From the NCBI GenBank assembly GCA_002839605.1, contig PGYK01000010.1, forward strand, positions 62,001 to 126,000: a DNA stretch of 64,000 nucleotides, in the 5' to 3' direction. Of the stretch, positions 27,419 to 31,219 are shown in pieces; positions within the stretch are counted from its first letter, which is position 1, and the number at the start of each line of letters is the position of its first letter. The DNA comes from Methanomicrobiales archaeon HGW-Methanomicrobiales-3. Its GTDB lineage: Archaea; Halobacteriota; Methanomicrobia; Methanomicrobiales; Methanospirillaceae. The position numbers were made by a program, and so were the translations under genes. The notes beneath the pieces are model-generated. The model saw only the letters and a program-made list of their open reading frames with translations. It was not told where the DNA came from and made no database searches.

Positions 27419-28126
27419 ATGACAACGACCGCCGTCCCCCCGTACAGCCTGGTCATTCCGGCCTATAACGAGGAGCACCGGATCTCGCTCTTTTTCGATT
27501 CCATCGACCATTTTGACGGCGAACTCATCGTAGTCTGCGACGGGATGGACCGGACCGCAGAGATCGCTGAAGGGATTGCCTCAAAAAGAACCGATCTTGT
27601 AATCCGGTGCCTCCGCTTCGACAAACGCCTTGGTAAAGGAGGCGGCGTGATTGCGGGACTTGCCGTGGCAAAAGCCCCGCTCGTGGGGTACGTGGATGCC
27701 GACGGATCTACCCGCATGGAAGAGATGATCCGGCTCTTCTCTTCCCTGTCGGGAGCTGACGGCGCGATCGGCTCGCGCTGGGTAGACGGGTCAACGCTGA
27801 AAGTGCGACAGGGATTCCTCCGCCGGATCGAGAGCCGGGGATTCAACCTTCTGATCCGGCTCCTCTTCGGGCTCTCCTTTCACGACACCCAGTGCGGTGC
27901 AAAGGTCTTTACCAAAGAGGCCATCGATGCGGTGCTGCCCGCCATGGTCTCGCACGGGTTCGAGTTTGACGTGGAACTCCTCTGGCGGCTCCGAAAGGCC
28001 GGGTTCCAAATCCAAGAGATCCCCATCGAATGGCAGAACAAGGGCGACTCCCGGGTGCAGAAGCGGGACATGCTCCGGATGCTTGCCGGCCTCTTCCGGA
28101 TCCGGTTTAACCGGGGGACGGCATGA
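27419..28126 (+). CDS. Family 2 glycosyltransferase (dolichyl-phosphate sugar synthase-like)
   Basis: This 235-residue GT-A glycosyltransferase has SLVIPAYNEEHRISLFF, the nucleotide-sugar aspartates in VDADGSTRMEEM, GAIGSRWVDG, and the late conserved SHGFEFDVELLWRLRKAG and IPIEWQNKGDSRV. The pattern resembles enzymes that load a sugar onto dolichyl phosphate at the cytoplasmic face, but the two extra C-terminal membrane helices of some relatives are missing. It may serve N-glycosylation or lipid glycosylation. Its stop overlaps the ATG of the following TPR gene (ATGA). It is the first gene of a four-gene run. Confidence 0.85.
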   Translation: MTTTAVPPYSLVIPAYNEEHRISLFFDSIDHFDGELIVVCDGMDRTAEIAEGIASKRTDLVIRCLRFDKRLGKGGGVIAGLAVAKAPLVGYVDADGSTRMEEMIRLFSSLSGADGAIGSRWVDGSTLKVRQGFLRRIESRGFNLLIRLLFGLSFHDTQCGAKVFTKEAIDAVLPAMVSHGFEFDVELLWRLRKAGFQIQEIPIEWQNKGDSRVQKRDMLRMLAGLFRIRFNRGTA

Positions 28127-29937
28127 TTCCCGCACCACCGGAAGACCAGAAAAAAAAGGCGTTCCGGCTCTTTGAAGATGGCAGGTACCTGGAATCATTA
28201 CAGTACTGCCAGGCGCTTGCGGATTTAAAAAAGGACCCGGCCATCGAGATACTTGCGGCAACCAATCTCTTCCTTGCCGGCAGGCTCGATGATGCCGAGG
28301 CAGCCTTCCTCGATCTTGCCCGCACCATGCCGGACTCGTCCTATGTCCACAGTTATCTGGCAAAGGTGCTCGAAGCAAGGGGGGATGAAGGGGCAACCGC
28401 CGAGTTTGCCCTGGCCGTCCACCTCGACCCGACCAACCAGGATGCCCTGCGCTCCTATGCCGCCTACCTTCTCGGGCACCGGGACTATCGGGGAGCAATG
28501 AGGGTGCTCCGCCGCCTTGTCCATATCAGCAGGAAGCCTGCGGATCTCAACAACCTGATGCGGGCACTCATCGAGATCGGCGACCCGGAGGAGGCACTGG
28601 CAGTCTTTTCGGTCATGGGCGAGGGAACCGGCCCATCATGCGAATATATCGATGCCCTTATCCGGACGGGGGACTACCCTTCTGCCGCTGAATCTGCCCT
28701 GGCACTGTACCGGACCAAAAAAGACCCGGACATGCTCAGGAAACATCTTGACGCCCTTTCCCGGTATGATCCCGCGTCATCGCTCGATGCCTACCCCGCG
28801 TATCTCGAAGAGTGTCCCGATGCAGGACTCCTCTGCGATTACATCCGGCTCCTGCAATCCACGGGAAACGATCGTGAAGCGCTGGCAGCAACCAAAAGGC
28901 TCCTGGCACGCGATCAAAAACCCGCATACCGGCTCCTGGAGTGTGACCTTCTTGCCCGGAACGGGGAGGATGAATCCGCCCTTGCTGCGTACGAACACCT
29001 GATCCGTGACGAGCTTGCCGCCAAAAACGATCTCGAAGAACTCGCGCGGATCATCGATCACTACCGCGAATTTTTGCTCAGTCGTGGGGACCCGGCAGGA
29101 TCGAAGAAGCGCTTCCTCGACCTTGTCTCGTCTGACGTGAACGTTGCAAGCCTCATCGGCACTGCCCGGTTCTGCCGTGATTGTGGCGATGCGGCTGAAG
29201 CCCGCTCATGGTTTTACCGGGCATACCGGGCAGACTTTTTTTTGGGGGGACTTGCCTATGCCCGGTTCCTCATCGAAGAGGGAGACGACCGCGAGTGCGA
29301 GAAGGTGATGCTCTACATCCTCGCAAACGTGAAGAAAGGATCGGATCTCACCCGGGTTGCTGCCGCAATCGTTGACGAGAACAAAAAGATGTTCCGGCTC
29401 AGGCGCTTAATGGACCAGCTGGTGAGACGGCTTGAAGAGCGGCGTCCCCAGCTCCATTCTGACGGGCTCGACCTGCTGGCAATGGCTTATTTTATCACCG
29501 CGTCCAATGCTCTGGAAGAGATGGACTTTGCCGGCTGCAAGTATCTCTGCCTTTCGGGGATGGACATCCTGCCCGCCCCTTCCCGCACCCTGCGTCTCGA
29601 AGACTTCCTCACCCTGGTCCGGGCCTGCAAGGAACGGTCGGTGGCTGACCGGCCAGCCCTCCATTCCCGGCCACAAAAAAAGAAGAAGGAAGCGGTGCCG
29701 CGGGCAGAGGCGCTCATACAGAAACTGGGCCTCACGGAACCCGAGCAGGAGATCGTTTCATTCCTCCAGGCCCACCGGAAGGCCACCGAGATGGACCTGC
29801 GCAAGGTGCTTGGCACGCGGCGGGTGGTGGGCATGGTGAATCTCCTCATCAGGAAGGCAGCAGGGCAGGGGATCTCCATCATCGAGAAGAAAGGGGTAGG
29901 CGAGGAAGGTGAAGTCTATGAATATACCGGAACCTGA
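28123..29937 (+). CDS. TPR protein with C-terminal winged-helix-like domain
   Basis: This 604-residue soluble protein consists mostly of degenerate tetratricopeptide repeats (from KKKAFRLFEDGRYLESLQYC through about residue 500) with no signal peptide. A linker rich in Lys/Pro (RPQKKKKEAVPRAE) precedes a terminal domain of about 70 residues, GLTEPEQEIVSFLQAHRKAT then MDLRKVLGTRRVVGMVNLLI, which has a winged-helix pattern. It could be an adaptor that joins protein partners to nucleic acid. It overlaps the glycosyltransferase by four bases and the downstream BREX-type ATPase by 20, so the three are translationally coupled. I do not know a characterised homologue. Confidence 0.7.
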   Translation: MIPAPPEDQKKKAFRLFEDGRYLESLQYCQALADLKKDPAIEILAATNLFLAGRLDDAEAAFLDLARTMPDSSYVHSYLAKVLEARGDEGATAEFALAVHLDPTNQDALRSYAAYLLGHRDYRGAMRVLRRLVHISRKPADLNNLMRALIEIGDPEEALAVFSVMGEGTGPSCEYIDALIRTGDYPSAAESALALYRTKKDPDMLRKHLDALSRYDPASSLDAYPAYLEECPDAGLLCDYIRLLQSTGNDREALAATKRLLARDQKPAYRLLECDLLARNGEDESALAAYEHLIRDELAAKNDLEELARIIDHYREFLLSRGDPAGSKKRFLDLVSSDVNVASLIGTARFCRDCGDAAEARSWFYRAYRADFFLGGLAYARFLIEEGDDRECEKVMLYILANVKKGSDLTRVAAAIVDENKKMFRLRRLMDQLVRRLEERRPQLHSDGLDLLAMAYFITASNALEEMDFAGCKYLCLSGMDILPAPSRTLRLEDFLTLVRACKERSVADRPALHSRPQKKKKEAVPRAEALIQKLGLTEPEQEIVSFLQAHRKATEMDLRKVLGTRRVVGMVNLLIRKAAGQGISIIEKKGVGEEGEVYEYTGT

Positions 29938-31219
29938 CAGGACCGACCGCGAGCGGCTCGAGAGCATCAATATCATCAACGCGCTCAGGCGGGGCACGGT
30001 CCCTGCCGGGGGCCTTGAGCGGATTGCTGTGGGCCTCGATATTGAAGAAGATGTCATCGCAAAGCAGCTCGATTACGTTGCGCTTGGCGGGGGCGACACC
30101 AAGTTTATCCGGGGCGAGTACGGGAGCGGCAAGACCTTCCTTGTTGCCCGGTCCCTTGAGATCGCCCGTGCAAAAGGGTTTGTCACCTCCCATGTTGTCA
30201 TCTCCTCGTCTGCACCGCTTCACAAGATCAAGAGTATCTACCAGCAGGTCTGTGCCGGTCTCCGCACCCGCGAGGAGGAGCACGCCCTCAAGACCATTGT
30301 TGATACCTGGCTTTTTTCCATTGAAGAGCGGCTCCTCTCGGCCAGCAACAACGAACTTGCCGATGCCGGCCTCGAAGAGGCGACCAGCCGGGAGATCGAG
30401 GCGGCACTTTCCGGCATCTCCGAGACAAACTCGGCCCTTGCTGCGGCACTCCGCACGTATTACAGGGCCAACAATACCGGCGACTTCCCGCTGGCGCAGG
30501 CGGCTCTCGGCTGGCTTGCTGCCGAACCCAACATCGGGCGCGACTTCAAGCAGAAGGCGGGGATCAAGGGGGATATCGACGATTCCATCGCCTTCCTCTT
30601 CCTCCGGGGCCTTGTTGCGGTCATCCACGGGGCCGGGTACAGCGGGCTTGCCATTGCTATTGACGAGATGGAGACCACCCAGGGACTCCAGCGGAGCCAG
30701 CGCGAGAAGGGATACCAGACGCTCGTGCAGGTCATCGATGCCCTTGACCGGGGCGATATGCCGCGCACGTACTTCCTCTTCACGGGAACTCCCGCCCTGT
30801 ACGACGGTTCCCGGGGGATCCGGTCGGTGCCCCCGCTCTTTGACCGTATCAGTATCGTTCAGACGGACGGGTTCCGGAACCCCCGGCAGCCCCAGATCGT
30901 TCTTGCAAAGTTCGACACCCCCCGGCTTGAACAGGTTGCCCTCAAGGTGATGGACGTGTACGCCCAGGCCTATGCGGAGCCGGACCGCGAACGGGTATCC
31001 CACCGCTTTATCCGGGCAATGATCAAGAAGATTACCACGCGCTTTGGCGGGCGCGTGGATATCATCCCGCGGATCTTCTTAAAAGAGTTTGTCGATATGC
31101 TGGACAAGTGCGAGATCTACGAGGACTACAACCCGTGGGAAGGGTACGAGTTCGACTTCGACCACTTAAAAGGGGATCTGAAGAAGGAGGAGGAGGCAGT
31201 CATGGTGGTGAAGTTCTGA
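29918..31219 (+). CDS. BREX-type (DUF2791) P-loop ATPase
   Basis: This 433-residue ATPase resembles the BREX system ATP-binding family (DUF2791, BrxC/BrxD-like). An N-terminal helical lead (LESINIINALRRGTVPAGGL) precedes Walker A GEYGSGKT (residues 66-73). Walker B is in GLAIAIDEME (about 243-252), with an arginine-rich sensor region at RSVPPLFDRISI. BREX ATPases belong to phage-resistance islands, but no methylase, PglZ, protease or helicase gene lies nearby, so this is an orphan or a differently built system. The ATG at 29918 has GGAAGGTGA five bases upstream; an earlier GTG at 29909 is less likely. It is coupled to the TPR/winged-helix gene. Confidence 0.75.
   Translation: MNIPEPDRTDRERLESINIINALRRGTVPAGGLERIAVGLDIEEDVIAKQLDYVALGGGDTKFIRGEYGSGKTFLVARSLEIARAKGFVTSHVVISSSAPLHKIKSIYQQVCAGLRTREEEHALKTIVDTWLFSIEERLLSASNNELADAGLEEATSREIEAALSGISETNSALAAALRTYYRANNTGDFPLAQAALGWLAAEPNIGRDFKQKAGIKGDIDDSIAFLFLRGLVAVIHGAGYSGLAIAIDEMETTQGLQRSQREKGYQTLVQVIDALDRGDMPRTYFLFTGTPALYDGSRGIRSVPPLFDRISIVQTDGFRNPRQPQIVLAKFDTPRLEQVALKVMDVYAQAYAEPDRERVSHRFIRAMIKKITTRFGGRVDIIPRIFLKEFVDMLDKCEIYEDYNPWEGYEFDFDHLKGDLKKEEEAVMVVKF

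What the first reader, a model, noticed from the sequence alone, without database searches (positions are those of the whole stretch)
27419..31219. TPR/winged-helix protein coupled to an orphan BREX-type ATPase
Three genes overlap or abut (glycosyltransferase, 604-residue TPR protein with winged-helix tail, DUF2791 ATPase with intact Walker A and B). DUF2791 ATPases are known from BREX/Pgl defence, yet no methylase, PglZ, Lon-like or helicase gene is near. This may be a reduced or different defence or chromosome-maintenance module using a TPR/DNA adaptor.
Basis: partly seen in the sequence, partly recalled or inferred. Interest (0 to 1): 0.6.

Follow-up and report, generated by a model that had tools for sequence, protein, structure and literature searches.

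The report
Split BrxD-helicase module in methanogens
A pair of overlapping methanogen genes, a repeat-scaffold protein with a DNA-binding tail and an ATPase borrowed from a phage-defence family, turns out to travel with a third gene for a matching helicase elsewhere in the chromosome; all three are kept or lost together, so they very likely form one DNA-handling machine that databases mislabel as part of the BREX defence system.

Summary
A TPR-winged-helix protein (T, 28123-29937) overlaps a BrxD-family ATPase (A, 29909-31219) with intact Walker motifs; the glycosyltransferase is only a neighbour. T and A stay paired at one chromosomal site (pyrG...hisD) across three Methanomicrobiales families. 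T is not found outside this order in the phylum sample. The genome holds no PglZ and no second PF10923 gene, so this is not BREX, although A passes NCBI's BREX_BrxD equivalog cut-off. In 132 genomes at least 90% complete, T, A and H are all present in 83 and all absent in 49, with no exception. A Methanospirillum lineage has cleanly lost T-A at one site and H at another, while its sister keeps all three. Best reading: a vertically inherited adaptor-loader-helicase module, kin to the BrxD-BrxHI dyad of BREX-2/6 and SngB-SngC of Shango, with T in place of PglZ or SngA and the helicase supplied in trans. That T, A and H form a unit is well supported. Helicase loading, and a role in genome maintenance rather than defence, are inferred. 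New variant of a known kind.

The parts
28123..29937 (+). T: 604-aa TPR scaffold protein with C-terminal winged helix (adaptor)
   Evidence: ORF; TPR matches; AlphaFold pLDDT 90; full-length homologues only in Methanomicrobiales in the phylum sample
28123..29637 (+). TPR solenoid of T, residues about 1-505
   Evidence: AlphaFold secondary structure; Foldseek hits to TPR superhelices such as OGT and Naa15
29701..29934 (+). winged-helix tail of T, residues 527-604, the most conserved part, with motif LGTRRVxGxxNRxI
   Evidence: Alignments; structure; weak reciprocal best match to the C-terminal tail of BREX-6 PglZ
29909..31219 (+). A: BrxD-family (PF10923, ORC/Cdc6-like AAA+) ATPase, 436 aa from GTG 29909 or 433 aa from ATG 29918
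   Evidence: Pfam 434 bits; NCBIfam BREX_BrxD 408 bits, cut-off 350; PADLOC BrxD 412 and SngB 158 bits; tree
30113..30136 (+). Walker A of A (G69-T76, GEYGSGKT)
   Evidence: G69, G72, G74, K75, T76 invariant in 20 homologues; G69, G72, G74, K75 also invariant in the BREX BrxD and SngB sampled
30662..30667 (+). Walker B acidic pair of A (D252 E253)
   Evidence: Invariant in A, BREX BrxD and SngB sampled

Best explanation
T (TPR plus winged helix) and A (BrxD-family ORC/Cdc6-like AAA+ ATPase) are two components of a three-protein DNA-handling module whose third component, a BrxHI-type SF2 helicase (H), is encoded elsewhere on the chromosome (G000 C16:287481-289628, outside the window). Most likely mechanism: T's winged helix binds DNA and/or docks A, its TPR solenoid holds partners, A forms an ATP-dependent oligomer, and this assembly loads or activates H on DNA. 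The module is kin to the BrxD-BrxHI dyad of BREX-2/6 and to SngB-SngC of Shango, with T standing where PglZ or SngA stands in those operons. It has no linked effector, modification enzyme or mobility in the loci examined, and is inherited vertically in Methanomicrobiales. It most likely serves chromosomal DNA maintenance (repair or clearing of DNA structures); a constitutive anti-element role is second. Shown: T-A linkage, T-A-H co-occurrence and co-loss, intact catalytic motifs, family membership of A and H. Inferred: physical complex, helicase loading, DNA binding, biological role.
For: T and A were paired in all 23 loci read in detail, with gaps of -89 to +4 nt by longest ORF. In 132 genomes at least 90% complete, 83 have T, A and H and 49 have none, with no mixed case (Fisher p 2e-37, not corrected for phylogeny). 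All mixed cases are genomes under 90% complete. Clean empty sites: in G154 the glycosyltransferase abuts hisD without T-A, and thioredoxin abuts the next gene without H, while its sister G182 keeps T-A and H in the same contexts (sister support 100/100). The neighbour-gene tree needs at least three presence/absence changes. A is joined with BREX BrxD (100/98). H scores BrxHI 541, SngC 394 and lies in the BrxHI/SngC clade, apart from Lhr. Strong H (over 400 bits) in the phylum occurs only in these Methanomicrobiales. BrxD is described as an ORC-Cdc6 AAA+ ATPase tightly linked to BrxHI, a possible helicase loader (PMC12839542).
Against: Co-occurrence is correlated by descent; only about three independent changes support co-loss. 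H is unlinked to T-A in the genomes examined, whereas BrxD-BrxHI are normally adjacent. The A model is of medium confidence (pLDDT 78) and its PDB matches are weak (best E 0.003). The winged-helix link to PglZ is only suggestive (E about 0.07; hhalign probability 50%), fails for BREX-2 PglZ and is based on three BREX-6 sequences. Repeated loss shows the module is dispensable, which also fits defence.
Confidence: 0.6

Rival explanations
1. The module is an innate anti-virus or anti-plasmid system: a constitutive Shango-like defence that recognises foreign DNA through T and remodels it with A and H.
For: A and H belong to families otherwise known from BREX and Shango. True Shango loci have the same adaptor-ATPase-helicase plan. 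The module is dispensable and lost repeatedly.
Against: Fixed syntenic sites, vertical inheritance and near-universal presence in three families. No credible T match on plasmids. No linked nuclease, methylase or PglZ recognised in the loci compared. Mobile Shango copies coexist in the same genomes at other sites.
Confidence: 0.28
2. T-A is a split STAND-like transcription regulator: T binds a promoter through its winged helix, senses a ligand through TPR, and A is the nucleotide switch. H is unrelated.
For: ATPase + TPR + winged helix is the parts list of AfsR/MalT-type regulators (general knowledge). Foldseek hits of A include CED-4 and Apaf-1 besides ORC/Cdc6.
Against: A falls with BREX BrxD, not with STAND regulators. 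H co-occurs perfectly with T-A. There is no fixed target gene: the glycosyltransferase is retained without T-A.
Confidence: 0.1
3. Degenerate remnant: leftover BREX-2/6 genes drifting without function.
For: No PglZ in the genome; A exceeds the BREX BrxD cut-off.
Against: Catalytic residues are invariant across three families; helicase motif II is intact in 20 of 20 and motif VI in 19 of 20 H proteins; the new partner T is full length and conserved.
Confidence: 0.02

Closest known systems
BREX type 2 / type 6 BrxD-BrxHI dyad (with PglZ upstream)
   Same: A is a BrxD-family ATPase and H a BrxHI-type helicase. In BREX the gene upstream of brxD is pglZ, with a 4-nt overlap in several loci. PglZ of Type 2 ends in a winged helix (PMC12839542), as T does.
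   Different: No PglZ genome-wide; T (TPR plus winged helix) stands in PglZ's place; helicase unlinked; vertical inheritance in archaea, where Type 2 BREX is reported absent.
Shango (SngA TerB protein, SngB ATPase, SngC helicase)
   Same: Adaptor + DUF2791 ATPase + BrxHI-like helicase plan.
   Different: T has no TerB domain; A scores BrxD 412 against SngB 158, H scores BrxHI 541 against SngC 394; Shango is contiguous and sporadic, this module is split and near-universal in its families.
Archaeal ORC/Cdc6 initiators and helicase loaders
   Same: A belongs to the ORC/Cdc6-like AAA+ class; weak fold matches to ORC/Cdc6.
   Different: A lacks its own winged-helix domain (it would be supplied in trans by T); the proposed partner is an SF2 Lhr/BrxHI-like helicase, not MCM.
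Lhr-type helicases (including DEXH_lig_assoc, TIGR04121)
   Same: H shares DEAD/Helicase_C and the WH_Lhr domain; TIGR04121 is its best NCBIfam match at 256 bits against a cut-off of 850.
   Different: H is about 717 aa, groups with BrxHI/SngC and not with the genome's own Lhr.

Membership tests
BREX (type 2/6) | PglZ phosphatase/nuclease | tested here: not met
   PF08665: no match in own genome; own genus not among the 26 of 199 genomes with a match
BREX (type 2/6) | BrxD ATPase | tested here: met
   NF033438 408 bits, cut-off 350; joined with BREX BrxD in tree
BREX (type 2/6) | BrxHI helicase | tested here: met
   PDLC02503 541 bits, but at an unlinked locus
BREX (type 2/6) | PglX methyltransferase, PglW, BrxC/PglY in the locus | tested here: inconclusive
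   Only one PF10923 gene in the genome; none recognised in the syntenic neighbourhoods, but PglX, PglW and DUF6079 were not searched genome-wide
Shango | SngA with TerB domains | tested here: not met
   T has TPR and winged helix, no TerB match; hhalign of the T tail to the SngA tail gives nothing
Shango | contiguous SngA-SngB-SngC locus | tested here: not met
   Helicase lies on another contig; true Shango loci are separate in relatives
BrxD ATPase family (PF10923/NF033438) | family score plus Walker A, Walker B and conserved arginine | tested here: met
   R313 invariant in A, BREX BrxD and SngB sampled
BrxHI/SngC-type helicase clade (for H) | groups apart from Lhr, with helicase motifs intact | tested here: met
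ORC/Cdc6 initiator | AAA+ plus own winged helix, origin binding | not testable with these tools
   A has no evident own winged helix in the medium-confidence model; origin binding needs experiment
Mobile defence system | sporadic, mobile, island-associated | tested here: not met
   Fixed site and near-universal in three families; no credible plasmid T

The most novel reading that the evidence does not exclude
Methanomicrobiales carry a chromosomally fixed machine in which an ORC/Cdc6-like BrxD ATPase, given its winged-helix domain in trans by a TPR adaptor, loads a BrxHI-type helicase on the cell's own DNA. If so, the BrxD-BrxHI dyad would be a general helicase-loading platform with exchangeable adaptors (PglZ in BREX, TerB in Shango, TPR here), not a defence-specific part.
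Probability: 0.4. Interest if true: 0.78.

Novelty: new variant of a known kind. Interest (0 to 1): 0.6.

Why it matters
It separates the BrxD-BrxHI dyad, whose role inside BREX is unknown, from BREX itself: a three-protein version with no PglZ in the genome gives a minimal system in which helicase loading by BrxD can be tested. It also warns that NCBI's BREX_BrxD equivalog model labels a non-BREX gene in archaea: in a 393-genome sample of the phylum, all 55 genomes with a hit above its cut-off have that hit at the T-linked gene. It points to adaptor-ATPase-helicase triads as a recurring theme across several contexts.

Tried and rejected
(1) Glycosyltransferase as a component: rejected; it remains where T-A is gone. 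(2) A T remnant in L237: an artefact of the glycosyltransferase region read out of frame. (3) Homology of T's winged helix to SngA's TerB-C tail or to BREX-2 PglZ tails: no profile signal; only BREX-6 PglZ tails gave a weak reciprocal match. (4) PDB sequence search for A and for the winged helix: nothing significant. (5) T-A on plasmids: the T tail gave no credible hit; A's best plasmid hits are BREX-2/6 BrxD at about 34-40% identity. (6) More BREX-6 PglZ from viral contigs: one poor hit. (7) The thermosome search for an H empty site chose the wrong neighbour and was replaced. (9) Literature: five papers hold both 'BrxD' and 'BREX' and none was found linking BREX to this archaeal pair.

Full report
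OBSERVATION. The three overlapping genes are real: glycosyltransferase 27419-28126, T 28123-29937, A 29909/29918-31219. T has TPR repeats; its AlphaFold model (mean pLDDT 90.3) is an all-helical solenoid to about residue 505, a disordered linker at 515-526 and a winged helix at 527-604. A matches PF10923, now named BrxC_BrxD (434 bits), passes NCBIfam BREX_BrxD (408 bits, cut-off 350) and PADLOC BrxD (412 bits; SngB 158). Walker A (G69-T76) and D252-E253 are invariant in 20 homologues, and most of these plus R313 are also invariant in the sampled BREX BrxD and SngB.

NOT BREX. The genome has a single PF10923 gene and no PglZ; none of its genus sampled has PglZ. In a 393-genome sample of the phylum, 55 genomes have a hit above the BREX_BrxD cut-off, each at the T-linked gene in Methanomicrobiales. 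A 2026 survey reports that Type 2 BREX, the type that carries BrxD, was not found in archaea, and describes BrxD as an ORC-Cdc6 AAA+ ATPase tightly linked to BrxHI, possibly a helicase loader (PMC12839542). The best plasmid matches to A are BREX-2/6 BrxD at about 34-40% identity, with pglZ upstream, often overlapping by 4 nt, and in most of the annotated loci a helicase downstream. Tree: A is one clade, joined with BREX BrxD and apart from SngB.

CONSERVED PAIR. In 199 genomes of the order, strong T is found in 113 and strong A in 111, always in the same genomes except two incomplete ones with T alone. In the 23 loci where both were called, they abut or overlap. The site is constant: argD, guaA, pyrG, thioesterase, (UPF0058, DJ-1, glycosyltransferase), T, A, then hisD. 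Outside the order, matches to the T profile fall from 1e-154 to generic TPR noise at 1e-19. Genomes of three other families keep this synteny to varying degrees with T and A cleanly missing. A tree of neighbouring housekeeping genes needs at least three presence/absence changes; G154 (without) and G182 are sisters at 100/100.

THE MISSING THIRD PART. Searching T-A genomes with the BrxHI model found, besides ordinary Lhr, a helicase of about 717 aa (H) scoring 513-544 bits in most T-A genomes, 413 in G182, and no counterpart in G154, where the best hit is Lhr. In G000 it lies at C16:287481-289628, on another contig. Order-wide and compared by script: among 132 genomes at least 90% complete, 83 have T, A and H and 49 have none, with no mixed genome. 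Mixed cases occur only under 90% completeness. H usually sits just downstream of a thioredoxin gene in a stable neighbourhood. In G154 and in G177 thioredoxin abuts the next gene with H precisely absent, while G182 has it there. So one lineage lost T-A from one site and H from another while their neighbours stayed. H belongs with BrxHI and SngC, not with Lhr, has motif II in 20 of 20 and motif VI in 19 of 20 members, and strong H is confined to these Methanomicrobiales (the next group, at about 336 bits, is the helicase of a different DUF2791 triad in f12 genomes).

MECHANISM. Shown: operon-like linkage of T and A, three-way co-occurrence, co-loss, intact motifs. Inferred: A oligomerises with ATP and loads or activates H; T bridges DNA and partners. 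Supporting analogies: the BrxC AAA+ domain, of the same broad class, binds BrxB-PglZ, binds DNA and is ATP-regulated (PMC13326643). BrxD lacks its own DNA-binding domain, and Type 2 PglZ, its upstream neighbour, ends in a winged helix (PMC12839542). T likewise ends in a winged helix and likewise overlaps A. A profile of T's tail has as its best match, among 3,872 reading frames of the non-core loci searched, the BREX-6 PglZ that precedes BrxD (E 0.07), and the BREX-6 tail profile ranks T proteins next after its own member (hhalign probability 50%). This is suggestive only: three BREX-6 sequences, and BREX-2 tails show nothing.

ROLE. Fixed sites, vertical inheritance, near-universal presence in three families and absence from plasmids argue for chromosomal maintenance over a mobile defence system; repeated loss says it is dispensable. 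Bona fide Shango loci coexist at other sites in the same genera, so the two are not substitutes. I put maintenance ahead of defence, with moderate confidence.

LIMITS. Co-occurrence is shared by descent: about three independent changes carry the weight, and the Fisher p value ignores phylogeny. No complex could be predicted. PglX, PglW and DUF6079 were not searched genome-wide, and the window was not scanned exhaustively for methylases. Named relatives of A are Methanoregula, Methanolinea, Methanospirillum, Methanofollis, Methanocorpusculum and Methanocalculus records.

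Noticed in passing
L086:6205-11500, L089:1000-6500, L232, L233, L234: A four-gene set: a protein of about 281 aa with no Pfam or PADLOC match, two successive DUF2791 ATPases and a BrxHI-like helicase, in several archaeal families; possibly an undescribed BREX/Shango relative.
   Followed up: partly
L228, L229, L230 (f12 genomes): A three-gene set: 258-aa protein with no Pfam match, BrxD-like ATPase and a 714-aa helicase, with overlapping or near-abutting genes; its helicase is the nearest non-Methanomicrobiales match to H.
   Followed up: partly
L225:10608-21789 (Deinococcus psychrotolerans plasmid): A tandem duplicate of a BrxD-like ATPase, DEAD/DEAH helicase and HNH gene set, each preceded by a different protein annotated as hypothetical (the first with a coiled-coil-like sequence).
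   Followed up: no
L083, L084, L085, L087, L090-L093 (also ATPase-helicase pairs in L082, L231): Shango loci (SngA-SngB-SngC) in Methanomicrobiales and other archaea, some in genomes that also carry T-A-H; family models were run on L082 and L083 only.
   Followed up: partly
L235, L236 (G154, G047): PglZ proteins of about 870-890 aa in Methanospirillum-group genomes that lack T-A (G154, G177, G197), but also in G047, which has T-A; their system was not identified.
   Followed up: no
L076:10441-11403 and L242-L244: An OB-fold/HD protein (YhaM-like) is the co-oriented neighbour of A in some families and of the glycosyltransferase where T-A is absent.
   Followed up: no
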